This document shows positions 1,702-58,700 of a stretch of DNA of 64,000 nt, one piece after another. Source of the DNA: Hippopus hippopus (Eukaryota > Mollusca > Bivalvia > Cardiida > Cardiidae); assembly GCA_946811185.2 (NCBI GenBank), contig OX328099.1:37311299-37375298 (forward strand), written 5' to 3'. How positions within the stretch are numbered: the first letter of the stretch is position 1; every line of letters starts with the position of its first letter. The notes beneath the pieces were generated by a model, which was not told where the DNA came from, searched no databases, and saw nothing but the letters and a program-made list of their open reading frames with translations. A program made the position numbers and the translations under genes.

Positions 1702-1747
1702 GACTCATCTGTTTTTATATTTGCTTATATATTTGGTGCTGAAAGAG

Positions 1748-3025: not shown

Positions 3026-5677
3026 CAAGAGGACCATGATGGTCCTATATCGCTCACCTGAGTACTCAGCAGTAAAGGTCTAAAATAAAGATAAATACCA
3101 AATATCGAGGTTCAAGGACAAATGATAATGAAACAAAAGCAACAAATTGTCACAAGATATGCCCGTCTCACCGCCAGTTGTGAAGGAGGTATAATAATTG
3201 CAAAGGGCAGGTAATGCAAGAGTGCCCTAAAGGTATTTCTTTAATTTGACCTAGTGACCTAGTTTACGACCTGAGTTGACCCAAATTCAGACTCATGTAA
3301 GATTTGATCAAGACAAATATTCTGACCAATTTTAAAAGTCAGTTGAGCAAAAAATGTGGCCTCTAGAGTGCCCTAAAGGTATTTTTTTAATTTGACCTGG
3401 TGACCTAGTTTATGACCTGAGTTGACCCAAACTCGGATTCATGTGAGATTTTATCAAGACAAACATTCTGACCAATTTTCAAGTCAATTGAGCAAAAAAT
3501 GTGGCTTCTAGAGTGCTCTAAAGGTAGTTCTTTTATTTGACCGAGTGACCTAGTTCATGATCCCAGGTGACCCAAATCCAAACTCATCCGAGATTTCATC
3601 AAGACAAACATTCTGACCAATTTTCAAGTCAATTGGGCAAGAAATGTGGCCTCTAGAGTGCCCTTAAGGTATTTCTTTAATTTGACCTAGTGACCTAGAA
3701 TATGACCCCATGTGACCCAATTTTGAACTCATCTTAGTTTTCATCAAGAGAAACATTTTAATCAATTTTCAAGTCAATTGAACAATAAATGTGGCCTCTA
3801 GAGTGCCCTAGAGGTATTTCTTTAATTTGACCTAGTGACCTAGTTTATGATCCCAGTTGACCCAAATTCAGACTCATGTGAGATTTTATAAAGACAAACA
3901 TTCTGACCAATTTTCAAGTCAATTGAGCAAATAATGTGGCCTCTAGAGTGCCCACATGGTATTTCTTTAATTTGACCTAGTGACCTAGTTTATGATCCCA
4001 GGTGACCCAAATCCAAACTCATCCGAGATTTCATCAAGACAACATTCTGACCAAATTTCAGGTCATTTGAGCAATAAATGTAGCCTCTAGAGAGCCCACA
4101 ATGTATTTTTTTAATTTGACCTAGTGACCTAGTTTATGACCCCAGGTGACCCAATTTTGAACTCACTGAACATGTTGTGCTCAGGTGGGCTAACAAACTT
4201 AGAACAGGTTCACTACATACCAAATATCAAAGCTCCAAGCCTTCCAGTTTCACAGAAGAAGAATTTTAAAGTTTTCCCTTTTTTGGTCTTATGTTCAAAC
4301 TTGTGACCCCTGGGGCGGGGCTAATTTTGACCCCAGGGGCATCATATGAACAAACTTGGTAGAAGTCAACTGGGAGATCCTACATACCAAATATCAAAGC
4401 TCTACACCTTCCAGTTTTAGAGAAGAAGAATTTTAAAATTTTCCTTCTTTCTTCCTTTGTTCGAACTTGTGACCCACGGGGCAGGGCCAGTTTTGACCCC
4501 AGGGGCAGCCTATGAACAAGCCTGGTAGAGGTCCACTAGGAGATGCTACATACCAAATATCAAAGCTCTATGCCTACCAGTTTCAGAGAAGAAGAATTTT
4601 AAAGTTTTCCTTCTCTGTTCCTATGTTTAAACTTGTGACCCCCAGGGCGGGGCCAGTTTTGACCCCAGGTGCATCGTATAAACGAACTTGGTAGAGGCCC
4701 ACTAGGAGATGCTACATACCAAATATCAAAGCTCTGGGCCTTCCAGTTTCAAAGAAGAAGAATTTTAAAATTTTCCCTTTTTTGTTCCCATGTTCGAATT
4801 TGTGACCCCTGGGGCCGGGCTAGTTTTGACCCCAGGGGCATCATATGAACAAACTTGGTAAAGGTCCACTAATGGAGATGCTACATACCAAATATCAAAG
4901 CTCTATGCCTTCCAGTTTCAGAGAAGAAGAATTTTAAAGTTTTCCTTCTTTGTTCCTATGTTCGAACTTGTGACCCCCGGGGCGGGGCCAGTTTTGACCC
5001 CAGGGACATCATATGAACAAACTTGGTAAAGGTCCACTAGCAGATGTTACATACCAAATATCAAAGCTCTATGCCTTCCAGTTTCAGAGAAGAAGAATTT
5101 TAAAGTTTTCCTTCTTTGTTCCTATGTTCGAACTTGTGACCCCTGGACCCCCGGGGCGGGGCCAGTTTTGACCCCAGGGGCATCATATGAACAAAATTGG
5201 TAGAGATCCACTAGGAGATGCTACATACCAAATATCAAAGCTCTATACCTTCCAGTTTCAGAGAAGAAGAATTTTAAAGTTTTCCTTCTATGTTCCTATG
5301 TTCGAACTTGTGACCCCTGGGGCGGGTACAGTTTTGACCACAGGGGCATCATATGAACAAACTTGGTAAAGGTCCACTAGGAGATGCTACAAACCAAATA
5401 TCAAAGCTCTACGCCTTCTAGTTTCATCAGAGAAGATTTTCAAAGATTTTGCTATTTTTTTCCTTTTGGTTGCCATGGCAACCAGAGTTATGGGTGGAAT
5501 TCAATCTCTTGAACAATTTTGGTAGAACTTCACCCAAGAAACATCCCTGCCAAGTTTCATCAAGATTGGCCCAGTGGTTTAGGAGGAGAAGATGTTTAAA
5601 GAAATTGTGGACGACGCACGACGGACATTGGGCAATCACAAAAGCTCACCTTGAGCACTTCGAGCTCAGGTGAGCTG
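3026..5677. mobile_element. Array-bearing Helentron/pearl-like element, family A copy 1
   Basis: The 5' side has the palindrome AGGACCATGATGGTCCT (3030-3046) followed by GCTCACCTGAG (3052-3062). The 3' side has a hairpin, GAGCACTTCGAGCTC, whose outer arm ends CTCAGGTGAGC (5665-5675), the complement of the 5' copy. Between them are two arrays: about seven units of about 145 bp with TTTGACCTAGTGACCTAG (3230-4190), then about eight units of about 165-174 bp with ACATACCAAATATCAAAGC (4200-5400). A unique tail ends in a GACGCACGACGGAC run. No protein is coded, although tandem units give spurious short frames. Confidence 0.8.
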
Positions 5678-18903: not shown

Positions 18904-20409
18904 CAAGAGGGCCATGATGGCCCTGAAGTCGCTCACCTGAGCCTTTTGATCAAACATGACCCATTTCCAATCTCTTCAGAGATATTAAGATAAACATTCT
19001 GATAAACACTCATTAGTATTGGACTTACAAATATGGCCTCTAGAGAGCACACAAGCTTTTTCTAGAATTTGTCTCAGCGGCCTACTTGACATGTAGAAAT
19101 TATCCAGATATACATTCTGACAAACTTTCATGAGTATTTGAGAGAAAATGTGGCTTGCAGGGTGTACAAAAGGTTTTTCCGAGATTTGACCTAGTGACCT
19201 AGTTTTTTATCCAACATGACCCATATTCATACTAGTCTAAGATATTATCAAGACAAACATTCTAAGCAAATTTCAAGATTATTGGACTGAAAATGTGGCC
19301 CCTAGAGCCTACACAAGGTTTTTAAAGGATTAAACTTGGTGACCTAGTTTTTGATTCCACGTGACCCATTTCCAAACTCATGCAAGATATCATCAAGACA
19401 AACATTCTGACCAAGTTTAAAGAATATTGGACTGAAAATGTAACCTCTAGTGCGTACAAAAGGTTTTTCCGACATTTGACCTAGTGACCTAGTTTTTGAC
19501 CCGACATGGCCCATTTTCGAACAAGTCTGAGATATCATCAAGAAAAATATTCCGACCAACTTTCAAGAGTATTGGACAGAAAATGTGGCTTCTGGAGCGT
19601 ACACATGGTTTTTTTTAAGATTTGACCTAGTGACTTAGTTTTTGACCCGACATGGCCCATTTTTGAACTCAGCAGAGATATTATCAAGACAAACATTCTG
19701 ACCAACTTTCAAGAGTATTAGACAAAAATGTGGCCTCTACAGCGTACACAAGGTTTTTCTAAGATTTGACCTTGTGACCTAGTTTTTGACCTGACATGGC
19801 CCATTTTCAAACTCGTCTAAGATATCATCAAGATAAACATTCTGACCAACTTTCAAGAGTATTGGACAGAAAATGTGGCTTCTGGAGCATACACAAGGTT
19901 TTTTAAAGATTTGACCTAGTGACCTAGTTTTTGACCCAACATGGCCCATTTTCAAACAAGTCTGAGATATCATCATGACAAACATTCTATCCAAGTTTCA
20001 AGAGTATTGGACTGAAAATGTGGCCTCTAGAGCGTACACAAGGTTTTTCTAAGATTTGACCTGGTGACCTAGTTTTTGACCCGACATGACCCATTTTCAA
20101 ACTCTTCCGAGATATCATCAAGGCAAACATTCTGACCAACTTTCAGGAGTATTGGACAGAAAATGTGGCCTCTAGAGCATACACAAGATTTTTCTAAGGT
20201 TTGACCTAGTGACCTAGTTTGTGACCCAACATGACCTATTTTCACACTCGTCTGAGACATCATCAAGCCAAACATTCTGACCAAGTTTTATGAGTATTGA
20301 ACAAAAAATGTGGCCTCTAGAGGGTACACAAGGTAAAAAGTTCACGACGCACGCCGGACACAGCACGATCACAATAGCTCACCATGAGCACTTTGTGCTC
20401 AGGTGAGCT
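18904..20409. mobile_element. Array-bearing Helentron/pearl-like element, family A copy 3
   Basis: It opens with AGGGCCATGATGGCCCT and GCTCACCTGAG and closes with AGCTCACCATGAGCAC, TTT, then GTGCTCAGGTGAGCT, a 3'-terminal hairpin. Inside are about eight units of 144-146 bp, each with TTGACCTAGTGACCTAG; landmarks lie at about 19478, 19623, 19768, 19912, 20058 and 20202. It closely resembles the copy at 34179, especially in the first 550 bases. Confidence 0.82.
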
Positions 20410-23217: not shown

Positions 23218-23772
23218 AGAATAACTTGTATCAAACCAGCACAGCCATCTAAACTGAATGTACTTCATTTTATGCCCAGGTTGATGTAATGGTTTAAATA
23301 CTTAGAATAGACTCTTCCTGGAGTTGATACCTTTATACCCTGGGAGGAAACTTCCAAATTTAAAGAGGAAATTTCCAATCATTCTGGAAGAAAATATTGA
23401 TTGAAATGTGGTAATTACAGCTATCGGATTTGCATATTATGTAAATTCTAGAAGCAATCTGGGAAACAAATCTTAGGAAATTATCAAAACTCAAGGCTAT
23501 TCACATTTTAAAAAGCGGACAGTTACTTGAACTCTTGATTTTGTATGCAAAATTAAGACTTTTCTCAAATCTTTAGAAAGAACACCAGCACCCGATTGTA
23601 TAAACGTTGGTTAAATTTAACCACTGGGTTAAAAGTTTGGTAAGAAGAGAGTTTGGGTTAAATTATTGTTTAGCGATTGTATAAAGGTCTGGTTAACTTT
23701 AACCAGAATCAAATTCCGGTTAAATTTAACCCACCTCCACTATACCGGTTAACCATTTAACCAAAAAACAAC

Positions 23773-24420
23773 ATGGCCGCCCTTATTACACCGGTGGCTA
23801 GACAACCGAGGCAATCTCGACAATTACATGTGCAAACTTACCAATTTGACGACAAAAAACCTCGACGACGATGTAGATTTGGGTTTGATGCGGCGAAATT
23901 AGACAAGAGATTGTATTTGTATGATCCCTGTACAGACAGACTAGAAAACCTATCAGGGGATCGACTTCTACACGGGACGAATCGTAACTTATCATTGACA
24001 TCAAGATCTAGCCTAGCTAGGCTTAAAATTGTCCTAAGGCTTATCATGGTTTATTTTGGAGACACATTTGGGGTAGATATCTGTACTGTGTCCAGAACCA
24101 TCGCAAGGGTTAGAATCAAAAAGACATTGTTTACTTTGAGAGACGTAGATCTAGATCTACCGGTAGACCTACATAGAATTCCCGACGGCCGGGGAAAAAC
24201 GATGGACCACACGACATGGGTTTTTCGAGATCGGCAGTTTTTTCTGGTGTTGTGGGATGCGTTGATGGGACCCACATTAAAATTTAATGTCCATCTGAAG
24301 ATGGGGTGGCCTTCATTAAAAGCTAAAAGTTTGCAGGAGACTGGGACTTTCCTGGGTGATAAAACAATGTGTACAGTAGTCTCCCCTGTCGGGACTGTAC
24401 CCTGAATGTCGAAAGTGACT
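23773..24420 (+). pseudogene. Degenerate Harbinger (PIF) transposase fragment
   Basis: An open frame from ATG 23773 to a stop at 24403-24405 carries GDTFGVDICTVSRTIARV, the helix-turn-helix-like segment preceding the catalytic domain in PIF/Harbinger and HARBI1 proteins. The catalytic start is in another frame: GVVGCVDGTHIKI at 24246-24284, with the VDGTH aspartate, is followed by an in-frame TAA and then CPSED. The gene therefore has at least one frameshift and a stop. The later D and E residues were not found. The start region is basic (PRRRCRF). It reads away from the left inverted repeat. I consider it non-functional. Confidence 0.75.
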
Positions 24421-24550
24421 TAGAAATAAGAGCAAATAGTGAATTCTTATTGATTTTCCCCACAATATAACAACCTATCTTCTTTTAAAACAAAGACCAT
24501 ATCCATGCACCAGGGAATGTATGCTATATTTAATTATGATAATCTACACC

Positions 24551-24625
24551 TCTACGTGAACGTGAATTCACTAATGGATAAGGCATCTGTCTCCGGAGAA
24601 GGATTTCGGGGTTCAAATCCGATGT
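24551..24625 (+). other. tRNA-Arg-like remnant
   Basis: CTAATGGATAAGGCATCTG and GGGGTTCAAATCC resemble the A and B boxes of an arginine tRNA. The loop CTCCGGA would give anticodon CCG. The acceptor arms do not pair. Confidence 0.45.
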
Positions 24626-24836
24626 AATAACATTTTTTCACAAAGGGATGTTCCCCACTATCTTAACTTTTTTTAACATTCATGTAGTCAGAAATTTAAT
24701 TTGTATCAAGAACTTTGGCCTTTGACGTCATTAAATTTGCGTCAGTGACTTCAGAAAGGGATCTTAAGACGAAAAAAAAGGGGCTTCTTCAGTTTTTCCA
24801 ATAATTGGATACGACTACATGTCTAGAGCATAATCT

Positions 24837-25131
24837 GCCAAGCTTCGGTATCTCAGTCGGTAGTGTACAAGACTTGAGAACAGAGGTCACTAGTTTGATC
24901 CGCAGCTCAGTCAATTTCTTTCTGAGGATTGATGATAGTCATTGTGACAGGAGTCATTCCTCTCTCACTACAGATCATTGTTTTGATATGGGAAAGCAGT
25001 CATTACCTTGGAAAGAATATTGTGGGGAGAACTGGTAACAAATGTTACAGGAAAGCATGGACAGGTGCACTGGCCACCGTGATAAAACTGAAATAATAGT
25101 GATAATGATGTAAAACACCATACAACCAGAA
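24837..25131 (+). mobile_element. tRNA-derived SINE, older copy
   Basis: The head is CGGTATCTCAGTCGGTAGTG with B box AGTTTGATCCG. The body is shared with the copy at 14572. CATAATCT flanks it at 24829-24836 and 25132-25139. Confidence 0.8.
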
Positions 25132-25582
25132 CATAATCTATGTATTCCTTTCATAAACTTCTGTCTTTCTTCCACAAACAAATCAAACCTATACTTAACC
25201 AGCTATTTATAGATTTACCAACCCCATTTCACCTTACATTTAGGATATATACCTATAGCAGAGGAAAATGTACTTTTCCAGTAGCATCAAAAACTTAATG
25301 GGTTGATAAGCAAGCAACTTTTACAAGCAATTTCTCCTTTTTGAAGCTACAGCTTCATGAGCATAAAAAGCTGTTTTTATCTCCAGTTGGAGAGTGATGC
25401 CTGAATGTGGGACAGCAAAAAAAAAACAGTTTTATCATTTTAAGTCATTTATCTCTGTAACATGTCATGACTAATGTTATATCCATCTAATCTTTGTAAT
25501 GAACTGATTAAATATCCAAAATAGTCAAAAAAAAAAAACATGTACTGAAATACACAAATTCTTTTAATCCCTGGAATGCAAT

Positions 25583-25801
25583 TTAACCCTCTACCACATA
25601 ATTCAATGATTCCAAGAAAAAAAGCTTGTGAAAACATTGTTGGAAAACAAGAAAATGTTAGTAACCAGTTTTTTTACTTTTTCCTAAATGTTTCCTACCC
25701 CATCAAAGAGAAGTAATCATCACTTGATCAACAGTTTAATTCGTCGTTTGCAAATACTTTCAATTTGCAGTCTAGAATTTTGTCGTTTGGTAAAAAGTTA
25801 A
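25583..25801 (-). mobile_element. TTAA MITE (family A)
   Basis: It starts TTAACCCTCTACCACATAA and ends GTCGTTTGGTAAAAAGTTAA. The hairpin GAAAATGTTAGTAACCAG is partly decayed. Confidence 0.72.
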
Positions 25802-26282
25802 ATGGGCTTTTTCTAGTCTGGAAAAAAAAGTGAAAATAGCAATATAATTTCACAATTATCTACCACAATATTGTTAACACAAAAGAAAGGTATAGATCAA
25901 AGATCATAATGCAGATTCTTTGCAGTCTGATCTCGATCTATATTGTCTGTAAAGGGTAGTCTGATAGGAATGGTTATACATTTTTTATGTGCTAACTTAA
26001 GTGGTTCATATAGCTTTGGTTTAAAAGAAAAAGAGTGGTTGAAGAAGTGACATGCTAAAGCATATTTTGCACATTGTGACACACTGAGGACACTTAAATT
26101 ACTCAAAAGTTCGACTGATTGAATGTATGGTTCTCCATTTGAACCTCTCATAACACCAAAACACCTGCCTGGAGTAAACTTGGTACAGCATTGTCCATGC
26201 ACTATCATTCTGTACTGAATGTCTGTGTTTTTTACCTATTTAAAGTAGAAATTCAATCTTTAAAGGAGTGAAATTCATTGTG

Positions 26283-26500
26283 TTAACCCTTTACCAAACA
26301 ATTCTGTCTTAGCAACTATAGAAAGGACTTTGTAAACATTGTGAGAAAATGGAAAATGCTAATAATCAACATTTTTTTCCATTAACCACCATGTTTTATA
26401 CCTTTTCAACTATTTTATCATTTGAACTACGCTTTAATTTGTTGTCTGCAAATGTTTTAAATCCAAATCAGTGCTATTTTTTTTCGTATAGAGTTGTTAC
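26283..26500 (-). mobile_element. TTAA MITE (family A), decayed right end
   Basis: It starts TTAACCCTTTACCAAACAA. The internal TTGTTGTCTGCAAATG mark is present. The end TTAA is lost. Confidence 0.62.
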
Positions 26501-28027
26501 GTGATGGATGTCATCTCTAAATGACAATTGCAAAGATCAATCCAGCACACTTTTGTAACTTTGATGCTACCAACCATGAGTGAAATTTTACCTATGCACA
26601 CCAAAATTAGTCTACATGTTTATGCAGCCTTTCTACAAGCAGTCAAATTTCAGTCTAAAACTTTCACTCCTTTTATGAGACATTTATCACAAAACAAAAA
26701 AAATACACTGAAAATGACTGACTGAAAATGATATACATGTAATAAAATGTATAGATTTGTACTGAAATTTTCTTTCAAAGTGTATTATGACTGACACAGA
26801 TTTCTGTTTTTAACTTGACTGCTAGAACTTGTGATGTTTACTAAGTCTTATACCTACTGGATGAAAGCAAAAATAACCCTGTTTTCTGACATTATTCACC
26901 TTTCAATTTTTATGTACAAAAGAAACTATCTTTGGCAAAAAGAAAATACACCAACCTGTTAAAAGTCTCTACAATGAAGTAGATTTATGACAGTATTTTT
27001 TTCTGTTGATAGTAGATCTATTTACCACAGTGGATCTGAAAAAGATTTCACACTCTGTTTTTACAACTCATTGATGTAGCACTAGTAACTGCTTCAAAGG
27101 CAATATATTTTTTGGTGCTCATGTTTGTAAACGTATGTCAGTGTTATACAAGAGATGAGTAAGGTAGCAGTTTATTTTGTATAACCGAAAAACTGCTTGA
27201 AGTCTGTAAAACACCGGTATGTCTATCACTTCTACCATAAACTGAACTAGGTGCAAAAATATCTGCATGAAAGTTAAAGCATAATCGGAGAACACAAACA
27301 TGACGGAAAGAGTCATTTATGCATGTTATATGTGAGATTCATTAGTCCATAGATATGACAGATACTTTTCCAGTACCTAATTTCTTTTACCTCTTCCACT
27401 GCCAGTGGGGATTGAAATAGCTTTTGGAGAGCTGAGACTGTGGATCAGAAACTGCAGTCTGCTACCTGATGCTTTTTTGCTTTTTTTTTTTTAGCTAAAC
27501 CATCTTACAGTACAAGAGTAATCTACTTTCAGGCTTTAAAATAAGCTGAAGTTATTATTATTTTTCTTTTTGGTGGCAAAAAAGTCACACATAACATTCA
27601 ACCAACTAGATTGTTGAACAACACATACCTGTCATTTTCTAAGAATGCTGAACTCCAGTTCTTGAAAATCAGTAATACAGTACTGCTCTACTATGCTAAC
27701 TACACCATCCCTTTACCACTTCACCATCATCATTCAAATATGTGTTTATTTACATAGGATGAGAATGACAGTAATGAAAGTTTTTGTATTGATCAGAATA
27801 AAACTAAAATACATAATGAAAATAAGATGAAACCCATGTTGTGGGTGCTCATTGGAATGTACTGAAGGATATCTCCCATACACATTTTAAAATTCCAATA
27901 ACCATCTGATAATCAGAAATCAATCTGATCCTCTGACAAATTACTTAAGAATGATTGCTACTTTCTACATGTATATACATGTATATGCCTGTTTGCCATA
28001 GAGCTCCCAGCCTCAGTTCGTTAATTA
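26501..28027. other. AT-rich stretch between a MITE and the piggyBac element, nothing recognised
   Basis: No coding similarity or repeat landmark is seen. If the Harbinger-like ends belong together this would be part of its interior, but no second Harbinger gene is visible. Confidence 0.45.
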
Positions 28028-29223
28028 TTAACCCTATACTCCACAGAAAAAACCAATAATCAATACTTCTCATCAATAGCCAATACAGGTATAGGCTTAT
28101 CAGTACACAATAAATAATCCACCCCTTATATATACCTATCTCCATATAAGGTTTTGATGAAATTTATTGATTTTTGGGGTGTTATTTTTACGGCCTAAGT
28201 AGGGCAATTTCTTCAACTCTGATCAAAATGTTGTAAATAAATGAATTGTAGAGGAAAACATGAACTTTTAAATGATATATTTTTTTTAGAAAAATGATTA
28301 AAAATAAGACATAAAAATGAGGTTTAAAATAGAAGGAACCAACAATTTTCATTAAAATTAAACTTTTAATTTAAAACTAAGTCATAAATACAAACAGGAA
28401 TCTTTTTAAATTACTACAAACACATTATTAAATTATCATAACATTCCTGGGAGGTTTCATGGCAGTATGAATATTTGGTCCCTTTATAAAATATTTCATT
28501 TTCTTTCAAAAATTAACCTAGCAGTGGTATTGGAAGGTAGCTTTTTCATTTTGAAATTACTATTATGTATATTGAAATTTTTAAAACTTTAAACTTAGCT
28601 TAAACATTGTGATAGAAGAATTATTTGGGAAAGCAAACCTCCTTTTCCCACAAAGATTTACCCTATACATTATGACAAAATTTAAGACTGTCCTCTAGAA
28701 AATTAGGCTCTAAGCAGATCTTTATTTTGATTGAGATTAATTGATGAAACAATTATTAGAAAGAGGATAAAAACAATATGTGAAGATGAGAAAATGTATG
28801 TCACTAGCATTTTCTTCTTTTTCCTACCATTGTTTTCAAAATTTCAGTATTATTTCGGTTGTAAAACATCTGGATTGTTCGATAAAAAGATGGAGAGAAT
28901 AGAAAGAACAAAAAAGAGACAATGTCATCAATTATCAATGAATCTTACCTGTCTTCTATAGGCTCAATTTTATAATCCATTTAAAATCCACATTTAAATC
29001 ATCGAATCACAAAGAACACTGTATGTATAACAGCTTCATGAATATAAAAAGAACTTTTTTTTTTACAAAACATTATGAACACAAAAGAACAAGTAAAAAA
29101 CACGCTTTTTTTTTCTTCTATGTACACTGCCACTCCCCAACTATTCCATGCACGTTTATATCATACAATAAACACAGACCTAACACATATTTACGTTTTT
29201 CTACTTTTTTCACGTTGTTTGAA

Positions 29224-31434
29224 TCATTGGTTATGAAAATGACTGTGGCACCCCTCTTTGCACAAATGAACGTTACAGACGGAACAACCGTACACTGTTT
29301 CACGCCGCTGTTTGAGAACCTTCAGGTGGTACTGGCATCGTCGTTTGGCACCTGGTAAGCGTCTGTTGATATGTCCATTTACGTTTTCAGCCTCAATAAG
29401 TCCTGGATGGTTCATGGAAACACTGGACCTCTTTCTCCTTGAATATCCCCCGATCAGGTCACGTGCTAGTTCTAAGCGGAAGTCGACATTGCGGAAACGT
29501 TTTTTCTTATTGACACGCTGGGAACTCATCGTGAACATAATGTAGGCATTTACTATACAGCAGTTCAACAAAAACCAGAAGAGATACCGCGACCACTTTT
29601 TGGAATTACGCCCAACATCATATTTCATTCTCATCTGGTCGTGTAAGTCAACACCTCCCATGAACTTGTTGTAGGATGAAACACTGTGAGGCTGTCGAAG
29701 CTGTATGACGTTGGCACCCACTCGTCGTGATGCTGTTTGAATGTTGTCTGGCTGGCTCAGGGTAGATAAATGATGCACAAGGCGCTTGTCTTTCCAAACA
29801 GAGGCGGTAAGTGGTGTTGCACCTTTCTGACGGACTTTCATGTCGCCTCTGTCTCTTATGTCTGCTGGTTTCTTCAATTCACCTGGGAAGCCCTGTCTAT
29901 TGCACCTAACCGTTCCACATGCATAAAGTCCATTTAGAAGCAGATGTTCCAGTAGCGGTACACTGGTGAAAAAATTATCAAAAAACACGCATCTGTTTGT
30001 GTGGATTAGATGGTCAGTTAGATTCATTACCACATTGTACCCAAGTCCATGGCCATGGTTAGTTGTGTTCTTCCCTAGATAAACGTCAAAACGTGACAAG
30101 TATGCGGAGTTCGAGTCACAGCACATCCAAACCTTGATACCACGTTTGATTGGCTTGGCAGGCATGTACTGTTTGAAGGACAACTTCCCAGCAAATCTTA
30201 TCATGGCTTCGTCTACTGCTACTTCCTTCGAAAGTTCATATGACTCACAGAATGTCCTTGAAACATGGTTGATAATCGGTTGAACTTTGTACAGACGGTC
30301 AAAATCATGGCTGCCCCTTTGAGGTTCTGTTTCGCGGTCTGACACGTGGAAGTATTGGCACAGTTTCTGGAATCTGTTGCAAGTCATAATATTCTGTATG
30401 CCGATGTTGCCAAGGAAACTGTTTGAGGACCAGTACATGTCATATTCAGGTAGCTGATTAATTCCCATGAGAATATTCATACCAACAAAGGCCTGCATTT
30501 CCAGCTCATTTGTCTCTGTCCATTTGTCGTCTGTGGTGCCAGTAGTTGTCTGTTTCCACCTGGCGTAGTTGTTGGTATGTCTTGCCATATTCGCAAACAT
30601 TGCTGGGTGGAATAGTAGCCAGAAGAAATCTAAAGGTGATGCTGTGTTACGGTCAAAGTCAGTGGGTAGCTTAGGACCTGGCTGTCTTTGGAAATCACCC
30701 ATCTGAAAAATTAAAAGACGAAATATAAGTTGTGATACATTTCAAAAGCAATTTCTATGCAGTGAATTGTAAACTGTCATAAGCGCCAGTAATATCTAGC
30801 CACTTATAATACTTTCCTTTCACTGATTTTCCCTTGATATGTAAATTATCAAAATATAGTTGACCTTAGTACATCATATGAATAATTGATGTCAACAAAA
30901 TGACAGTGTATTTTTTTTTGCTGCTGTAGTTCATTCATTAATTATTGTTATTATTTATTCATATTTTAATTCAGTGGTTACTAGATCGTGCTCAACAGTT
31001 TGCTGGGCATTCTACTAACACCCCCCCCCCCCAAAAAAAAAAAAACATATCTATGCACCTATTAAAAATTCATCAGGACGCTTATTTTTGTGAAAAAAAT
31101 GACGAAAGTAATGGGAACCAACATATACTCAGTTGACTGGAATCAAAACCTACAGAAATGATGTCGGTGCGTGAAAAATTCCGACAATTTTGCGAGCGAT
31201 CGTTCTTATGATCCGGAATTAGGGCTTACCCGAAAATTGGTGAAGCAGCCCGTCCATTGATGATCTTCCGGGGCTTCCTCGTCAGAAAAATCACTCCTGT
31301 CGGCGGAGTCGACGCTGCTCACAGAAGAAACTTCGATGTCTGAGTCGGATTCAGTGTCTGGGCCTCGTAAGCAAGTCGGATTCATCAAAACCCTCGAAGA
31401 TCGAGTCATTATCGCTGTCGGAAAATTCAGCCAT
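29224..31434 (-). CDS. piggyBac transposase (DDD family), probably two exons
   Basis: Cut-and-paste transposase. The main exon (30702-29224, 492 codons) holds the whole catalytic domain. First Asp is in VDEAMIRFAGK (near residue 168 of this exon), second in FFDNFFTSVPLLEHL, third in GGVDLHDQMRMKYD, matching the piggyBac DDD triad. The C-terminus is a cysteine/histidine-rich domain (CSVCNVHLCKEGC, then HSHFHN), the usual DNA-binding ring-like module. An upstream acidic exon ends at 31230 with CGG|GTAAGC; the intron 31229-30703 ends in TTTTTCAG and joins in phase 0, so translation continues directly into MGDFQ. The N-terminal exon has two overlapping frames: ATG at 31434 opens MAEFSDSDND but stops after about 28 codons, while ATG at 31409 opens the acidic SDSDIEVSS frame that joins the catalytic exon. 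This suggests a one-base indel, or use of the second start. The catalytic region has no visible lesion. Confidence 0.9.
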
Positions 31435-31796
31435 TTTCGCTTGTTGTGATATTTATATTGAACAGGGGTTTTCTATTATAAGCTTGTATTTCGCGCGTCG
31501 TATTAGCGAATGAAAAGCCTAGAAATTATAGGTTAATCTATTTTTAACAAATAAGTCACGTTTTATGGCCCATAATTCATCGGGAAACCAATAGAATCGT
31601 GTGCAATACTGCGTGGGTGATGCGTGACATGTGGCATATACCACCTTCGATTGGACGTTATTTTTAGCAACAACTTTAGAACAAAGTATGTCATTTTACA
31701 TCCGGAATAGTTTCCCAAGATGTTTTTGTTTATGGATTTACAAGAATTGAGGTCAGTTGAATTTAAAAATGTTGTTTTATTTGCGTTTGAAAATGG

Positions 31797-31937
31797 AGGC
31801 GTCCACAAGCGCTTGCATGGAGCAAGAGGTAGAGGTGTCGTAAGGCGCTTCTATGGAGCGTGCAGTAAAAGCGTCCAGAGGCGCTTGCATGGGGCAATAG
31901 TAAAAGGCGTCCAGAGGCGCTTCTGTGGAGTATAGGG
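31797..31937. repeat. Four 36-bp subterminal repeats at the piggyBac right end
   Basis: GCGCTT recurs at 31809, 31845, 31881 and 31917, exactly 36 bases apart, within units resembling GGCGTCCAGAGGCGCTTCTA. The last unit runs into the terminal repeat, so each unit looks like a degenerate copy of the tip (GCTTCTATGGAGC against GCTTCTGTGGAGT). They are candidate transposase-binding sites. Confidence 0.85.
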
Positions 31938-33097
31938 TTAAATGGTACAAATACAAGCTAAACTGAGGCAAGATTACAAATTGGCAAATAATGATAACTT
32001 TCAACATCTAGCATATTCGTCATGTTACTCTAAATCTTTCAAATTTTAGTCAAGTTAACATGAGATGCAACATGGGATTCTGGATCAAGTTCGTTTTCGA
32101 AAGTTGGGTAGTTTTTTACCCGTGACAACCGTTATGCTGTTCTCAATCATTCATCAAAAACATTGTCTTGATATACGGTCATTTATGTAGAATAGTACAG
32201 AAGGTGGGAGAGTGGGTTTACGGGCTTATTTAACCATTTTCTGTTCAAATTTTGGCGGGTAATGTACGAAAAGGCAGTTGCTACTAACAAAACTTTTACT
32301 GGACAGTTACGGATGACACAACTTCCGGGTCTTTCAAAGTGCTGAAAATTTGTATTATCGGAAAAAAATATTGCGATAGAAAGTCTTATTGCAAATATAA
32401 AACACACGAACCTTACCTAAGACATAGTCTTGTATGTAGTCATCAATATTTGCCTTTAAAACCGACGTATAGATCGCCGCATGTGAATGAGGTTATCGCT
32501 GTTTTCAAGCAGGAAGAGATACACTGGGTACGGACAAAACCACTTCGACAGCCTTTATTTTATCAGAATACGACCGGACATCTCAGATTTTTGTCTGAAT
32601 TACATGTTTAGACTTAGGAGGCTATACAAAAACTAAAATATGTGTTTAAACCCAAAATAACAGCGGTAGTAGTATAAAAATACATCATTATAATCAGTTA
32701 TCACACTCTCATTATGTTGTATGAGCGGTAAAATGTGCGTGAGGGGATACATTTTGTGACGTATCGCGCGTGAAAACTTGGAAAGAGAACTGCATGACGG
32801 GATATATTTGTTTGGTTAAAGTTTGGTTAATTTAACCATTCTGGTTAAGTAACCAATTTGGTTATCTGTTTTATACAAGTGTTTAACCAGTTTGGTTAGT
32901 TAACCAAACTGGTTAAAAGTTAACCCAGGGTTAGAGTTTAACCCTGAGTTAATTTAACCAACGTATATACAATCGGGTGCTGATATCCAGTATTTTACAG
33001 TCTTACTGGTATCCTGGATTTTTGTAAAATACAAGTAACGGCTGAGGGATTGTTTGATTTAGTTCATATTTATTTATCATCGCCACCGGTTGCCCAT

Positions 33098-34178: not shown

Positions 34179-35682
34179 CAAGGGGGCCATGATGGCCCTT
34201 AAGTCGCTCACCTGAGCCTTTTGATCAAACATGACCCATTTCCAATCTCTTCAGAGATATTAAGACAAACATTCTGACAAACACTCATTAGTATTGGACT
34301 TACAAATATGGCCTCTAGAGTGCACACAAGCTTTTTCTAGAATTTGTCTCAGCGGCCTACTTGACATGTAGAAATTATCCAGACAAACATTCTGACAAAC
34401 TTTCATGAGTGTTTGAGAGAAAATGTGGCTGTAGGGTGTACAAAAGGTTTTTCGAAGATTTGACCTAGTGACATAGTTTTTTATCCAACATTACCCATAT
34501 TCATACTAGTCTAAGATATTATCAAGACATACATTCTAAGTAAATTTCAAGATTATTAGACTGAAAATGTGGCCTCTAGAGCGTAAACAAGGTTTTTCAA
34601 GGATTAAACCTGGTGACCTAGTTTTTGATTCCACGTGACCCATTTTCAGACTCATGCAAGATATCATCAAGACAAACACTCTGACCAAGTTTAAAGAATA
34701 TTGGACTGAAAATGTAACCTCTAGTGTGTACAAAAGGTTTTTCTGAGATTTGACATAGTGACCCAGTTTTTTATCCAACATGACTCATTTTCATACTAGT
34801 TTAAGATATTATCAAGACAAACATTCTGACCAAATTTCAAGAGTATTGGACTGAAAATGTGGCCTCGAGAACGTACACAAGTTTTTTTCTAAGATTTCAC
34901 CCGGTGACCTAGTTCTTCACCTGACATGACCCATTTTCACACTTGTCCAAGCTATCATCATGACAAATATTCTGACCAACTTTCAAGAGTATTGGACTGA
35001 AAATGTGGCTTCTGGAGTGTACACAAGGTTTTTCTAAGATTTGACCTAGTGACCTAGTTTTTGACCCGACATGACCCATTTTCAAACTCGTCCAAGATAT
35101 CATCAAGACAAACATTCTGACTAACTTTCAAGAGTATTGGACTGAAAATGTGGCCTCTAGAGCATATGCAAGGTTTTTCTAAGATTTGACCTAGTGACCT
35201 AGTTTTTACGCGACATGGCCCATTTTTTAACTTGTCCGAGATATCATCAAGACAAACATTCTGACTAACTTTCAAGAGTATTGGACTGAAAATGTGACCT
35301 CGAGAGCGTACACACGGTTTTTCTAAGATTTGACCTACTGACCTAGTTTTTCACCCGACCTTACCCATTTTTTAACTCGTCTGAGATATCATTAAGACAA
35401 ACATTCTGACCAACTTTCAAGAGCATTGGATCGAAAATGTGGCCTCTGGAGTGTACACAATGTTTTTCTAAGATTTGACCTATTGACCTAGTTTTTGACC
35501 CAACCTTACCCATTTTCGAACTTGTACGAGATATTATCAAGACAAACATTTTGATCAAGTTTCATCAGTATCTGACAGAAAATGTGGTCTCTAGAGCGTA
35601 TACAAGGTAAAAGTTGATGCCGGACGCCTGACACAGCACGATCACAATAGCTCACCATGAGCACTTTGTGCTCAGGTAAGCT
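34179..35682. mobile_element. Array-bearing Helentron/pearl-like element, family A copy 4
   Basis: It starts with GGGGCCATGATGGCCC and GCTCACCTGAG and ends with the GAGCACTTTGTGCTC hairpin; the outer arm is slightly changed (CAGGTAAGCT). It holds an array of about eight 145-bp units like those at 18904. It inserted into a TTAA MITE, whose left part is visible at 34012-34178 and a foldback part at 35683-35750. Confidence 0.8.
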
Positions 35683-46010: not shown

Positions 46011-46719
46011 CAAGAGGGCCATGATGGCCCTGGATCACTCACCTGAGTCAATAGGCGAAATTCACTCCACATGCATAATTCAATTTCTGACAAATTGTCA
46101 GGTCAACTGAGCTTAAAATGTGGCCTCTAGAGGCGTCCACAAGGGATTTCTGTAAGTTGACCTAGTGACCTAATTTATTACCCCACATGACCCGCTTTAG
46201 AAATCATCAAAAAATTTATCAAGACAAACATTCTGAACAGTTTTCAAGTTAATTGAGCAATAAATGTGGCCTCTAGAGTGCCCACAAGGTATTTCTTTAA
46301 TTTGACCAAGTGACCTAGTTTATGACCCCAGGTGACCCAATTTCAAACTCATCCAATATTTCATCAAGACAAGCATTTTAACCAATTTTCAAATCAATTG
46401 AACAACAAATGTGGCCTCTAGAGTGCCCAAAAGGTATTTCTTTAATTTGACCTATTGACCTAGTTTATGACTCCACATGACCCAATTTAGAACTCATCTG
46501 AAAATTTATAAAAACAAACAGAACAGAACAGACCAGAACAGAAACTTTATTCATAATATCGGCTTGAACACATAAGGTTCATCGCCAAACACATAAATTC
46601 TATATACATACATGGGTATGGACAAAACAAACTAACAAACAAACAAAAAACAAATGATATCAAATTGGTATCCAGAAATAAATGAGTGAATGCGGAAATA
46701 ATGAATAATAAAAATGAAA

Positions 46720-47325: not shown

Positions 47326-48600
47326 TTAATCACTGACAATACTCAATTCAGTTTTTCTTTTCTCACTTGCCTTAATATAGAAAATTCCAACTGCATTTAA
47401 TACTTTAACATTTTCACAGTTTAGGAGCTGGATTAATTTTAACATACTCGGTTTATGATAATAATACTTTTTAAAATACAAATGCCTCAATTCATTATAA
47501 GCTGGACAAATTAACAAAAAATGATACTCATCCTCAACTTCATTCAGAGTGCACAGTGAACATGTTCTTTCATTTCTAACAATGTTTCTATGTCGACCTG
47601 TTTCAATAAAAAGGTTATGCGCGGACAGACGTAATTTGGCAACAGCGTTTCTGTATGTTGTTATTTGCATTTTACAAAGATAATTTGAAAAACTAAAATC
47701 TACTTTAAGATGTCTGTAAACAAACAGTGAAGGTCTATTATTAATATCTTGGAACCACTCACTCACATAAACGTCAATCAGTCGATTACGGAAAATAGGT
47801 ATAAATATATTTAAGTTCACTGAAGCGGGAAATAACCATATGTCGTAAAAGCCCGTCCTTTGTAATAGCTCTTTTACTTTGAATGTCCAAAGGTTAGGGT
47901 TATTTATTTTATCTAATTCTACCAGGAAAAATACAATTAGATCTTTTATCTGTGAAAAGTTTTATGAAATATTTAATTATTCTCGTTTTTATATTAATAT
48001 GTAAGGGGTATCTTCCAAATTCGCCCTAGATAGCTGAATTAGTAGTTGTGGTCTTGACATTTAACAATTTTCGAAGAAATTTTCTGTGAAGTCTTTCTGT
48101 AAGTTCACTTGTCACAAAGCCCCAGACCTCGCTAGAATAGTATAGAATCGATGTGACAAAGGAGTCAAATAAATTAATCATGATTTTTAAAGGAATTTCT
48201 TTATGTCTAGTGATTTGTAGTAAATCGCTCATTGCACGCGTCGCTTTCCCCGTTAAAGTCTTAAGGGCATTTTGAAAACTTCCATTGCTAGTAAAAACTA
48301 GGCCTAGATAATTGAAAGTGTTGACTTTTTCGATTATGTTACCTGAATATGTAAAATTAATTTCTTCAGTCAAAGTCCTACCTCTACGAAAGACAACTAT
48401 TTTGGTTTTTTGAACATTTACTTTAAGGTTCCACTTTTCACAATATTTCTCAAATTCTGTTAATAACTGCTGTAATCCTGTAGCGGTATCGGAAATAAGG
48501 ACCAAGTCGTTTGCAAATAGTAATAAATAAAATTGATAATTGTCCTAGCGTAAAGCATTCATTGGTATTCTGCTGTAAAAACAACTCGATGTCGTTAACG
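47326..48600 (-). pseudogene. Reverse transcriptase C-terminal half and zinc-knuckle tail, LINE remnant
   Basis: The frames read in order: NDIELFLQQ; a frameshift; LLLFANDLVLISDTATGLQ (the RT active-site box, where the usual FADD is FAND, AAC at 48509-48511); FNYLGLVF; the thumb region with ILYYSSEVWG; LNVKTTT; an in-frame TAG near 48026; then GEFGRYPLHINIK. A second open frame (47820-47326) carries AKLRLSAHNLFIETGRH and a C-terminal CSLC plus EDEYHFLLICP motif, the cysteine/histidine knuckle of jockey/CR1-type LINEs. One catalytic aspartate is lost and there are a stop and a frameshift, so the copy is dead. Clade assignment is tentative. Confidence 0.8.
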
Positions 48601-51324
48601 AAAAGTGAGAATAAGAACAAACATTGACCAATTTTCAAGTCAATTAAGCAAAAAATGTGGCCTCTAGAGTGCCCTAAAGGTATTTCTTTAATTTGACCTA
48701 GTGACTTAGTTTATGACCCCAGTTTACCCCATTTAGAACTTATCTGAAAGTTTATCAAGACAAACATTCTGAATAATTCTCAAATCATTTGAGCAATAAA
48801 TGTGGCCTCTAGAGTGCCCACAAGGTATTTCTTTAATTTGACCAAGTGACCTAGTTTATGACCCCAGGTGACCCAATTTCAAATGCATCGGATATTTCAT
48901 CAAGACAAACATTCTGACCAATTTTCAAGTCAATTGAGCAAGAAATGTGACCTCTAGAGTGCCCTAAAGGTGTTTCTTTTATTTGACCTAGTGACCTAGA
49001 TTATGACCCCACGTGAACCAATTTTGAACTCATCCTAGATTTCATCAAGACAAACATTTTAACCAATTTCCAAATCAAATGAACAATAAATGTGACCTCC
49101 AGAGTGCCCACAATGTATTTCTTTAATTTGACCTAGTGACCTAGTTTATGATCCCTGGTGACCCAATTTTAGACTCACCTGAGATTTCATCAAGACAAAC
49201 ATTCTGACCAATTTTCAAGTCAATTGAGCAAGAAATGTGGCCTCTAGAGTGCCCACAAGGTATTTCTTTAATTTGACCTAGTGACCTAGATTATGACCCC
49301 AGGTGACCCAATTTCGATGTCATCGAATATTTCATCAAGACAAACATTCTGACCAATTTTCAAGTCAATTGAGCATGAAATGTGACCTCTAGAGTGCCCT
49401 GAAGGTATTTCTTTCATTTGACCTAGTGACCTAGAGTATGACCCTATGTGACCCAATTTTTAAGTCGTCCTAGATTTTATCAAGACAAACATTTTAACTA
49501 ATTTTCAAATCAATTGAAAAATAAATGTCACCTCTAGAGTGCCCACAAGGTATTTCTTTAATTTGACCTAGTGACCTAGTTTATGACCCCAGGTGACCCA
49601 ATTTTTGAACTCATCCTAGATTTCATCATGACAAACATTCTGACCAATTTTCAAGTCAACTGATCAAGAAATGTGGCCTCTAGAGTGCCCTAAAGGTATT
49701 ACTTTTATTTGACCTAGTGTCCTAGATTATGATCTCACGTGACCCAATTTTAAACTCATCCTAGATTTCATCAAGACAAACATTTTAACCAATTTTCAAG
49801 TCAGCTGAGCAAGAAATGTGGCCTCTAGAGTGCCTACAAGGTATTTCTTTAATTTGACCTAGTGACCTAGTTTATGACCCCAGGTGATCCAATTTTAAAC
49901 TCATGCGAGATTTTATCCAGACAAACATTCTGACCAATTTTCAAGTCAATTGAGCAAGAAATGTAGCCTCTAGAGTGCCCATAAGGTATTTCTTTAATTT
50001 GACCTAGTGACCTAGATTATGACCCCAGGTGACCCAATTTTGAACTCATCCTAGATTTCATCAAGACAAACATTCTGACCAATTTTCAAATCAATTGAAC
50101 AATAAATGTGGCCTCTAGAGTGCCCAAAAGGTATTTCTTTAATTTGACCTAGTGACCTAGATTATGACCTCAGGTGATCAAATTTTGAATTCATCCTAGA
50201 TTTCATCAAGACAAACATTTTAACCAATTTTCAAATTAATTGAACAATAAATGTGGCCTCTGGAGTGCCCTAAAGGTATTTCTTTAATTTGACCTAGTGA
50301 CCTAGATTATGACCCCAGTTGACCCAATTTTGAACAAACTTGGTAGAGGTCCACTAGGAGATGCTACATACCAAATATCAAAGCTCTACACCTTCCAGTT
50401 TTAGAGAAGAAGAATTTTAAAGTTTTCCTTCTTTGTTCCTATGTTAGAAATTGTGACCCCAAGGGCTGGGCCAGTTTTGACCACAGGGGCATCGTATGAA
50501 CAAACTTGGTAGAGGTCCACTAAGAGATACTACATACCAAATATCAAAGCTCTACGCCTTCCAGTTTTAGAGAAGAAGAATTTCGAAGTTTTCCTTCTTT
50601 GTTCCTATGTTCAATCTTGAGACCCCTGGGGCGGGGCCAGTTTTGACCCTAAGGGCATCGTATGAACAAACTTGGTAGAGGTCCACTAGGAGATGCTACA
50701 TACCAAATATCAAAGCTGTATGCCTTCCAGTTTCAGAGAAGAAGAATTTTAAAGTTTTCCTTCTTTGTTCCTATGTTCAATCTTGAGACCCCTGGGGCGG
50801 GGCCAGTTTTGACCCTAAGGACATCGTATGAACAAACTTGGTAGAGGTCCACTAGGAGATGCTACATACCAAATATCAAAGCTCTACGCCTTCTAGTTTC
50901 AGAGAAGAAGATTTTCAAAGATTTTGCTATTTTTTCCCTTTTTGTTGCCATGACAACCAGAGTTATGGCTGGAATTCAATCTCCTGAACAACTTTGGTAG
51001 GGCTTCACCCAAGGAACATCCCTGCCAAGTTTCATCAAGATTGGCCAAGCGGTTTAGGAGGAGAAGATGTTTAAAGGAATTGTGGACAGACGGACGCCGG
51101 ACAACGACTGGTCACAATACCTCCCCTGAGCACTTCGTGCTCAGGTGAGCTAAAAAGTGGTATGGCCCATAGCATACTAGGTCAAAAAAGTGGTCCGGCA
51201 CTCACCGGACCTGCTGGACTACCAATGACGGCCTTGAAAACATGGCACCAGGAGCTCTCAATCGCAAACAGTACAAAATAGTTTTTTGAATAATCAATGA
51301 CGTGAGTCTTGTTGAGGTTTCTAT

Positions 51325-55700: not shown

Positions 55701-58700
55701 ATGACATAAGCTTACTGGCTTTTAACTAGTGAAGTTATTTGTTTACCAAACAACCCAAATTTTTAGCTTGTCCAAATCAAAAGGTTTTTAAGACAACAAA
55801 ATAAAGGTGGCTCAAATCTTAAGAGTAATCTTTAGAAAGACAGCAAAAATTGCAGGAAAAGCAGAAAATGCTAATTTAACAGCCATCTTCTCAGGATATT
55901 TAAAACTAAGGACTGTTTGGTAAAGGGTTAAACCCCTGTAGTTACCTGCAATTTCTAAACTTGTCACTTTTCATAGTTCTTAGGACAGCCATTTCCAAAA
56001 GATGCATTAAACAGCAATCTGCATCATGGAATGCATTTAATTCATGGCTCGTTAATGGAAGATGAGCCTACCTGATATACGACGTTTCATAGTCACATGA
56101 CACAGGTTCTGTATATCAAATGCAAGTCTCCCTCGATCTCTTGATCTAGGAATAGAACAAACTTTACATCCAACAATATCACTCAAAGTTATAGTCATTG
56201 GTACTCGTCCATATCTCCATGCCCCACTCCGTTTACTTATTGCTGATAAGTACTGAATAATTAGTGGTATTGAAACTCCAAATGGTAAATTTCCAATGAT
56301 GTGAATTTTGGGCATTTTGTCCTCCCACGGCACAACATACTCCTCTGGAAACAGGTTGTCCATGGGAAATTGCAAGCAGTCTTTGTGATGAATGGTCATA
56401 CACTGTGATCGTTTCTCTAAGACCTGTAAAGACATTTTCTACACATTCATTTCATGTTAGTAATTTTCTCATTATTTCAATTTATCAACTCACTATCTTT
56501 ATAGCAACCAGATCACAGGGGAAAATATTGTGGCAATCAGCGATGATTTTTGTAACCAGAAAATTCTACTTTTGCCACAATGTTTTCACCTTTACTTATG
56601 TATCAGAACCTTCTGGAGATAAATTTCACATTTGATTTCCCATCTGCAGATGCTTTCAATTTAGAGAAGTCTTAAATTTTGATGTTTGAAAAGGAGTCAA
56701 ATGATGGGATCTTTCTTTGAAAGGGCAGAAAACATTGTTTGAAATGAAGAACAGCTTCTTTTCCCAAAATGTTTTCAAACATACTACTCATGAGGTTTTG
56801 TTGAACACTGGATTGTTTGCTAAAAGCTAAAAGTTGTGTTTTATATTAACCTTTGCCTTAACCATATACTTTTTGCAGATGCCACAAACCCCCTTTTCAC
56901 AGAACTTGACTCATTATATGATACTATGCAAGGGTCAAATTCAACTTTTTTTCAACTAGCAAAAATTTGCTAGTGACCATTTTTTCTACTAGCCAAAATC
57001 AATTTTGTAGAGCAGGTGCATGTGATTCCGAACGACGTCTTATTCCGAACAAGTTCCTATTTATGACCTTAGTTCTTTTGCACTACAAATATGACATCAC
57101 ATGTATAACGTAGCTATATTACTCTTTCCCGTTTCGCCATTTTGGAGCCAATATGTGATTATATCTCCCACAACTTCAAGTTTGTTTTGCTACTCGCAAT
57201 CAGCTGAGTAAAATTGTGACATTCGCTAATCCAACGACATTGTTACTTAAGGTTACCTTGCGCCACAAAGGCACTAGAAATCTGTTTTTGTATCGTTTTA
57301 TTAACGGTGAAACTATTATTTACCAGCATCAATAGACATTTTAAATCATTACGTGTGGTTGATGAAGATATCTGGCTGTTCGGATTTCAAACCTTATTTT
57401 CCCACACTGGTTTTAATTACGAATTATGTAAATATTGTTAGGTTCAATCACTGAAGGTGTGATTATCATGGGAAAATTGGTTCACTGATACGAGCTTGTT
57501 TCATTTGCATGTTTCATGTTATAAGAATAAATCCATTGTTTTGTTGATATCTTGAGCATTGCTGTAAAATAATGTTGAGAACATTGTGACAAGAGGAGAT
57601 ATTGCTCATCATAAGCAATAACTCCTTTGGCCACAATATTTTCAAAACTTTTCAGTGACGCAAACTATGCAACAAGATGTCAAGGGATTTTTTTCCCTTT
57701 CCGTTCTGTTCTGTTCCGTGATTTAGTAGTGACCCATAGATATTAGACTGGGGTCTTGTCAGCATATAATGCCATTATCGATACCTCGATATCTGACAGG
57801 ACCCCGGTCAAAATAGATATCTTTCCAGAGTTGTCGTTATTTGCATACACAAGGGTGTTCGCAAATAACCGTAATTTCTGGTATAGACTGCTTTTAACAC
57901 CTGTTTGAAGTGGTATTTTTTAAAAATTGCCGACGTGTTCTGATTTACAACCATATGTATTCGGATTCATAACCAGCGTTCGTAATTTCAACCCTTCGGT
58001 TACATCGTAGAAATGCCCATAACTCGATATCGGTGCACTATACTGCGTTAGTTATCAGTTACAATTGTAAGGAATACACAAAAGATGATAAAAATGACGT
58101 CGCCTGTTCAATAGGTGGTTTTATTTACGAACGGCAAATTATCATGCTTAGGTGTTCGGTAATGGGTGCACTCGCTCTACTAGCAATATTTTAACCCATT
58201 GGGGTCTGTGCATTCCTGCAATGTCACGGAATCCGGCCTTTTGCCGAATAAACTGAATATTTTCCGCTCCATACTCTCAGCGAGGCAATGCAGACGTATA
58301 AACAACGTCAGAATCGTCTACACGCTTTAAATATCGGATACATGTATTTACAATATCGCAACAAGCATCTCTACAAATACCGGTCACGTGGTCAGTGATA
58401 CTCTCAAAGGATAGTTCTACACCGCATACGGCAATTCAGTGTACACGAAAAACGACCACAATTACGGATTAATTCAGATTTTTAAGCGGTAGGTTTGCCC
58501 ATTTTCCGGCGCACTAGCAAATTATTTCGACTGTTAGAATTTGGCACTCGCATTTTTTCAATTCAGCTCACATTTTGCGAGTTTGTGACCGTTAAATTTG
58601 AACCTTGCTATGCTTGTGTAATAATACATTTTTAGAAATCTGTAAATTTGGCTTCAATTTTTTTTTTCTTTTTTTCCGCAATGTTTTCAAAACCCATCTT

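What the first reader, a model, noticed from the sequence alone, without database searches (positions are those of the whole stretch)
28032..31937. Structurally complete piggyBac element that may still be, or recently was, mobile
Seen: perfect 17-bp inverted repeats, TTAA on both sides, an uninterrupted 492-codon catalytic exon with the three aspartate motifs and the C-terminal Cys/His domain. Known: piggyBac moves by TTAA cut-and-paste. Inference: young, because terminal repeats decay quickly. The only visible lesion is near the N-terminus.
Basis: partly seen in the sequence, partly recalled or inferred. Interest (0 to 1): 0.75.

Follow-up and report, generated by a model that had tools for sequence, protein, structure and literature searches.

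The report
Young piggyBac transposon in a giant clam
A giant clam carries six nearly identical copies of a piggyBac "jumping gene" that moved within the last few million years; the copy in this window is complete at its ends but has a damaged start of its enzyme gene, and it appears to have jumped after that damage arose.

Summary
In detail: window 28032-31937 is a 3,906-bp piggyBac element with perfect 17-bp terminal repeats, TTAA on both sides and an uninterrupted 492-codon catalytic exon. The host looks like Tridacna derasa (mitochondrial ND4 100% identical). The genome holds six copies of this family, on six contigs, 0.6-1.8% apart, each between a duplicated 4-bp target (five TTAA, one CTAA). 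The window copy's flanks, joined, match sites without the element (40 of 40 listed matches, best 100%), because it landed inside a dispersed 5.5-kb transposon. So the family moved recently on an evolutionary scale.

The window copy is probably not autonomous now: exon 1 is frameshifted and four private amino-acid changes include two at conserved positions. The frameshift and six other derived changes are shared with the C8 copy, whose flanks differ. The damaged lineage therefore moved after the damage, most simply using enzyme from intact copies (two of six are uninterrupted with both exons open). An altered but active enzyme is not excluded.

The transposase-proximal end carries four 36-bp units, laid out like piggyBat's left end. 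New member of a known kind.

The parts
28028..28031 (.). TTAA target-site copy, left
   Evidence: the empty site with a single TTAA is present elsewhere
28032..28048 (+). left terminal inverted repeat (transposase-distal end), 17 bp
   Evidence: same 17 bp at this end of the other five copies except one mismatch in the C3 copy
28049..29223 (-). 3' non-coding part; no good match to the 36-bp subterminal unit within 200 bp of this end; carries a diverged stretch resembling MITE-type hairpins that are common in this genome
29224..30702 (-). exon 2: 492 codons, piggyBac catalytic core (D164, D242, D352) and C-terminal cysteine-rich domain
30703..31229 (-). GT-AG intron, phase 0 (predicted)
   Evidence: families B and C also have a separate short exon-1 reading ahead of the long one
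31230..31434 (-). exon 1: acidic N-terminal region, frameshifted here (reading from the first ATG stops after 27 codons); open for 69 codons up to the donor in copies C10, C14, C5, C3
31230..31409 (-). alternative ATG reading (60 codons) that joins exon 2 in frame with a different N-terminal tip; candidate start for a 552-aa product
31787..31930 (-). four 36-bp subterminal units (10-bp motif CYCCAYRNAA followed by a 14-bp imperfect palindrome GCG-N8-CGC; third unit degenerate); proposed transposase/CRD binding sites
   Evidence: layout compared with piggyBat left end, PMC11707139
31921..31937 (-). right terminal inverted repeat (transposase-proximal end), 17 bp
31938..31941 (.). TTAA target-site copy, right
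23586..32982 (.). host repeat interrupted by the piggyBac: 5,487 bp without it, with CAGCACCCGATTGTATA... terminal inverted repeats

Best explanation
The feature is a complete piggyBac-superfamily DNA transposon, one of six members of a young low-copy family in a giant clam (Tridacna derasa by mitochondrial ND4). It moves by cut-and-paste: the transposase cuts at the 17-bp TIRs and inserts into TTAA, duplicating it (shown by target duplications and empty sites; the chemistry is inferred from piggyBac). The transposase is made from two exons, exon 1 coding an acidic N-terminal tail and exon 2 the catalytic core and cysteine-rich domain (CRD) (frames shown, splicing inferred). At the transposase-proximal end, four 36-bp units, each a tip-like motif plus an imperfect palindrome, probably bind the transposase core and CRD dimers; the other end lacks them, so the synapse is asymmetric as in piggyBat (inferred). 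The window copy carries an exon-1 frameshift and probably does not make the normal enzyme. Because the C8 copy shares the frameshift at an unrelated site, this damaged lineage was itself moved afterwards, most likely in trans by enzyme from intact copies (inferred).
For: Perfect TIRs and TTAA. PF13843 over its full length. PDB sequence hits piggyBat 1.6e-39 and piggyBac 3.8e-38; AlphaFold model (pLDDT 89) matches 9c0f at 4.8e-28 and 6x67 at 2.4e-26. Six copies at 98-100% by left-end DNA search, pairwise 0.58-1.82%. Target duplications: TTAA at C4, C10, C8, C5 and C3, CTAA on both sides at C14. Empty-site search: 40 of 40 listed matches run unbroken across the insertion point, 26 over the full 350 nt, best 100%; the C9 copy aligns over the 5.5-kb host repeat except about 26 bp at its 3' end, at 98.0-98.6%. 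Exon 1 is open in C10, C14, C5 and C3, frameshifted only in window and C8, which share six derived substitutions and are split from the rest with 98% support; their flanks, compared over up to about 2.7 kb, share only dispersed repeats. Subterminal units keep their positions in family C, and the first three do in family B; the other end has none.
Against: No transcript, protein or transposition assay. Movement in trans is inferred from a phylogeny of six copies; the split of window and C8 from the rest also fits an N-terminally altered but active enzyme. The palindromes are imperfect: 3-4 of 7 pairs match in family A units. The right-end DNA search never ran, so solo right ends are not excluded. 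Only 40 of 145 candidate empty sites were scored.
Confidence: 0.88

Rival explanations
1. The frameshifted lineage is still self-sufficient. Translation starts at the second ATG (window 31409), giving a 552-aa transposase with a changed tip, or at the exon-2 ATG, giving a 492-aa core without the acidic tail. The enzyme is active, perhaps more so, because inhibitory casein-kinase-II-type sites are lost.
For: The alternative ATG reads in frame into the rest of exon 1 and the donor site and has A at -3. Three of eight S/TxxD/E motifs are missing in that reading, all eight if exon 2 alone is used. PMC11707139 (passages) says that removing such sites by N-terminal truncation or mutation stimulates piggyBac, and that N-terminal mutation makes piggyBat hyperactive. 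The lineage did move after the frameshift.
Against: The first ATG has A at -3 and G at +4, a stronger context by the recalled Kozak rule, and its short ORF overlaps the second ATG. In exon 2 the window and C8 copies have 6 and 4 amino-acid-changing codon differences from the majority against 2 and 3 silent ones, whereas C10 has 0 and 1: no sign of selection on the damaged lineage, though the numbers are small. Intact copies that could supply enzyme exist.
Confidence: 0.13
2. The copy is a domesticated or co-opted piggyBac-derived gene rather than a transposon.
For: NCBI names its relatives 'piggyBac transposable element-derived protein 4-like', and the 492-codon exon is open.
Against: TIRs and TSDs intact, six copies at unrelated sites, frameshift in exon 1, and changes at conserved residues.
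Confidence: 0.01
3. The copies are old and look alike only through gene conversion.
For: Three variable sites conflict with the tree: one shared by C10 and C5, one by C14 and C3, one by C10, C8 and C14.
Against: Flanks are unrelated. The derived changes shared by window and C8 lie at six positions from 576 to 3460 of the element, not in one short tract. The element lies inside a host repeat itself about 1.3% from its C9 paralogue.
Confidence: 0.04

Closest known systems
piggyBat (Myotis lucifugus), transposase structure 9c0f
   Same: Best sequence and fold match; part of the C-terminal domain aligns, weakly. One end carries repeated units of a core motif followed by a 14-bp imperfect palindrome, and the other end lacks the palindromes (PMC11707139 passages; here).
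   Different: Four units at 36-bp spacing instead of three at 44 bp. No GCGGGA motif: the repeated motif here is CYCCAYRNAA, directly followed by the palindrome (3 bp apart in piggyBat). Predicted intron here; [quoted passage not shown] 22% identity over the fold alignment.
piggyBac (Trichoplusia ni), 6x67/6x68
   Same: TTAA target, DDD core, CRD, acidic N-terminal region that corresponds to exon 1 here (query residue 12 aligns to residue 120; the structure models hold residues 117-594, PMC7351741 passages).
   Different: 19-bp internal palindrome on both ends in T. ni; here palindrome-like units on one end only. Two exons here.
Bivalve piggyBac relatives (named hits include Mercenaria mercenaria 72%, Ruditapes philippinarum 74% over 63% of the query)
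   Same: Same protein family over the catalytic exon.
   Different: Only protein models seen; their ends were not available.

Membership tests
piggyBac superfamily | TTAA target duplicated on insertion, empty site with one TTAA | tested here: met
   one of six copies has CTAA on both sides, a variant listed for other piggyBacs in PMC10813416
piggyBac superfamily | short TIRs beginning CCC | tested here: met
   17 bp CCCTATACTCCACAGAA
piggyBac superfamily | DDE_Tnp_1_7 transposase with DDD triad | tested here: met
   D164 to D242 is 78 residues, D242 to D352 is 110; the roles come from the alignment to piggyBac and recall
piggyBac superfamily | C-terminal cysteine-rich domain | tested here: met
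   zinc binding itself not tested
piggyBac superfamily | precise, footprint-free excision | not testable with these tools
   needs a cell assay
piggyBat-like ends | palindromic CRD sites repeated on one end only | tested here: inconclusive
   repeated imperfect palindromes on one end only, but binding by the CRD was not tested
piggyBat-like ends | GCGGGA core-binding motif upstream of each palindrome | tested here: not met
   the motif there is CYCCAYRNAA; so it may work like, but is not claimed as, a piggyBat-type end
autonomous element (window copy) | complete open transposase | tested here: not met
   exon 1 frameshifted
autonomous element (family) | at least one uninterrupted copy with both exons open, TIRs and TSD | tested here: met
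   copies on C10 and C14; activity not tested

The most novel reading that the evidence does not exclude
A natural lineage of piggyBac that lost the proper start of its acidic, self-inhibiting N-terminal tail by frameshift, yet spread under its own power from an alternative start, i.e. a naturally occurring counterpart of the engineered N-terminally altered, de-repressed piggyBac enzymes.
Probability: 0.1. Interest if true: 0.55.

Novelty: new member of a known kind. Interest (0 to 1): 0.35.

Why it matters
It gives a molluscan piggyBac family with intact ends, sister copies with open exons, datable insertions and empty sites, which is enough to test mobility directly. It also suggests that the PiggyBac gene-family expansion reported in another giant clam (T. 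maxima, PMC11700175, passages) may in part be real young transposons. The repeated units on one end suggest that a piggyBat-like asymmetric end layout is not limited to bats.

Tried and rejected
Considered and dropped: a domesticated gene (TIRs, copy number); truncation of the C5 copy (it first looked 371 bp short, but the missing end lies beyond about 6 kb of inserted DNA); segmental duplication as cause of the shared frameshift (flanks share only dispersed repeats); spread by a virus (in viral contigs one stretch matched a pattern but encodes no relative; no match in phage records). The CCCTTTACTCCACAGAT sites that I examined are not deletion derivatives of this element: 12 of 16 examined non-family places belong to one 230-bp MITE family, the other 4 match it only in part. 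Lists seen only in part: the TIR list shows only the first places, so the 2-mismatch class is incomplete; the left-end search lists 15 matches, 6 of the family and 9 more distant or partial.

Not achieved: right-end DNA search; separate searches with each flank (did not complete; replaced by the joined-flank search); empty sites in other individuals; transcripts. Luo et al. 2022 on N-terminal phosphorylation is not held and is cited only through PMC11707139. I saw no description of this element in these search listings: piggyBac+bivalve (41 papers, 15 listed), piggyBac+mollusc and others (59, 15 listed), Tridacna+piggyBac (1 paper), piggyBac+mussel and others (26, 8 listed); this does not show that none is in print.

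Full report
What is there. The element runs from 28032 to 31937 on chromosome-size contig C4 (C4:37339330-37343235, from the window placement). TIRs are 17 bp and perfect, TTAA lies on each side. On the minus strand, exon 2 (30702-29224) encodes 492 residues matching DDE_Tnp_1_7 over its full length. By sequence, the two solved relatives found are piggyBat and piggyBac; an AlphaFold model from 39 sequences (pLDDT 89.0, pTM 0.81) has the same two as its best PDB matches. D164, D242 and D352 are invariant among 39 sequences. That these are the piggyBac catalytic aspartates rests on the alignment and on recall of the piggyBac numbering.

Host. The last-numbered contig (C34, 23,957 bp) is mitochondrial; its ND4 is 100% identical to Tridacna derasa, next best 75-76% in other Tridacna. 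I call the host T. derasa on that basis only.

Copies. A whole-genome search with the left 419 bp gave 15 matches, six at 98-100% (C4, C10, C8, C3, C14, C5) and nine more distant or partial; no short derivative with this end appeared. The TIR search gave 9 exact TTAA+TIR places and 12 with one mismatch; 12 of these 21 are the ends of the six copies. Four copies are uninterrupted (C4, C8, C10, C14); C5 is split by about 6 kb of inserted DNA and C3 by two shorter insertions. Pairwise divergence is 0.58-1.82% (15 pairs). The C14 copy lies between CTAA and CTAA, so the enzyme can use a one-base variant of TTAA or both copies of the site changed alike; the former is simpler.

Empty site. The flanks joined at one TTAA (350 nt) matched 40 listed places, all unbroken across the junction: 26 over 1-350, one over 1-338, 13 over 28-350 (145 candidates, 40 scored). 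The best (C9, 100%) was fetched: the homology extends from window 23581 to 28031 and from 31938 to 32956, at 98.0% and 98.6%. The piggyBac thus landed in a 5,487-bp repeat with its own terminal inverted repeats (23586-32982), and is younger than that repeat's arrival here. The two host-repeat copies differ at 72 aligned positions (62+10, gaps apart), about 1.3%.

Age. The window copy has 14 private substitutions, C8 9, C10 5, C14 15, C3 28, C5 37 in about 3.86 kb; terminal branches are 0.0043, 0.0023, 0.0015, 0.0042, 0.0082, 0.0102. With 1.1e-8 per site per generation and 10 years per generation, the values used for T. maxima in PMC11700175 (passages), this is very roughly 1.4-4 million years for the four uninterrupted copies and 7-9 for the two interrupted ones. 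The rate is borrowed, and a terminal branch also holds changes made before the last move.

The lesion. In C10, C14, C5 and C3, exon 1 reads 69 codons of acidic, serine-rich sequence up to the donor site; in the window and C8 copies it is frameshifted and the first ATG's reading ends after 27 codons. Families B and C also have an open exon 1, so the frameshift is derived. Window and C8 share six further derived substitutions, at positions from 576 to 3460 of the element, and are split from the other four with 98% support (the tree is unrooted). Three variable sites conflict with this tree. The flanks of the two copies share only dispersed repeats. At least one transposition therefore followed the frameshift. 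Two readings fit: movement in trans by an intact sister's enzyme (preferred), or an active protein from another start. An ATG at 31409 reads in frame into exon 1 and on to exon 2 (60+492 codons). PMC11707139 (passages) says N-terminal CKII sites are inhibitory in piggyBac, that truncation or mutation there stimulates it, and that mutating such sites makes piggyBat hyperactive, so the second reading is not absurd. Against it, the window copy has 6 amino-acid-changing and 2 silent codon differences from the majority in exon 2, two of them at conserved positions (R141 to Q, W371 to S), against 0 and 1 in C10.

Ends. The transposase-proximal end carries four units of 36 bp starting at bp 8, 44, 80 and 116: a 10-bp motif and then a 14-bp stretch GCG-N8-CGC (exact at 18, 54 and 126; degenerate at 90). 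Three exact stretches in 160 bp were reached in 0 of 10,000 simple shuffles (base shuffles of a tandem repeat, so this shows enrichment, not independence). The best matches to the unit on the other end reach 12 of 25 positions against 19-23 here, for a consensus that I drew from these units. Units sit at the same places in family C, and the first three do in family B (its fourth is shifted). In piggyBat, three units of GCGGGA plus palindrome occupy the left end (bp 11-16, 55-60, 99-104, palindromes 3 bp downstream, the last at 107-120) and the palindrome is absent from the right end (PMC11707139 passages). The first palindrome here is at 18-31. I infer CRD binding and an asymmetric synapse; nothing here tests binding.

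Relatives in the genome. PF13843 gives 119 matches in this genome, a lower bound and not a count of elements. Family B (C2, C3, C18) has three complete copies whose pairs differ at 5, 13 and 14 of 4,561 positions, hence younger still. A further family (C8, 29.305 Mb) is 83% identical in exon-2 protein, with dN 0.106 and dS not computable by the script, as happens when silent sites are saturated; this fits past purifying selection.

Literature. PMC11700175 reports PiggyBac-derived protein families among those expanded in T. maxima and thinks this came from incomplete masking (passages). PMC10294476 finds PiggyBac in all molluscan genomes analysed and lists 27 curated consensus elements (passages). 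PMC10813416 finds 212 piggyBac types in 37 of 79 species, TIRs mostly 4-24 bp, and CTAA among rare targets (abstract; first part of section 3; passages). By these standards the element is an ordinary, well-preserved member.

Noticed in passing
window 23586-32982 (minus the piggyBac); L058: A dispersed 5.5-kb repeat with CAGCACCCGATTGTATA... terminal inverted repeats and a 210-aa ORF without Pfam match hosts the piggyBac; 40 listed places carry the part around the insertion site.
   Followed up: partly
G000:C5 56.12-56.65 Mb (outside the window): Nineteen of the 40 empty-site matches lie here, most at a regular spacing of about 24 kb: apparently a large tandem array of a unit that contains the host repeat.
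   Followed up: no
L015, L016, L017 (C18, C3, C2): piggyBac family B: three complete copies whose pairs differ at 5-14 of 4,561 positions, with open exon 1 and a 457-codon ATG reading of exon 2; looks more recently active than the window family.
   Followed up: partly
L035, L037, L041, L045-L053, genome-wide: A 230-bp MITE family with TTAA and tip CCCTTTACTCCACAGAT, the 12 copies examined about 97-99% alike to one of them; three of these and two other places (L033, L042) share the first 16 bases of the window element's TIR. Which transposase moves it is open.
   Followed up: partly
window 56055-56438 and 58771-59151 (-): Two exons of an rRNA adenine dimethylase-type gene (PF00398; the match at 56055 is just below the curated cut-off), probably the mitochondrial transcription factor TFB1M by recall.
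   Followed up: partly
window 48029-48544 (-): Remnant of a LINE-type reverse transcriptase (PF00078); an adjoining ORF at 47329-47961 has no Pfam match.
   Followed up: no
window 3219-4169, 19112-20334, 34370-35608, 46116-46520, 48617-50335: Arrays of a 145-bp tandem repeat containing GACCTAGTGACCTAG at five separate places in the window.
   Followed up: no
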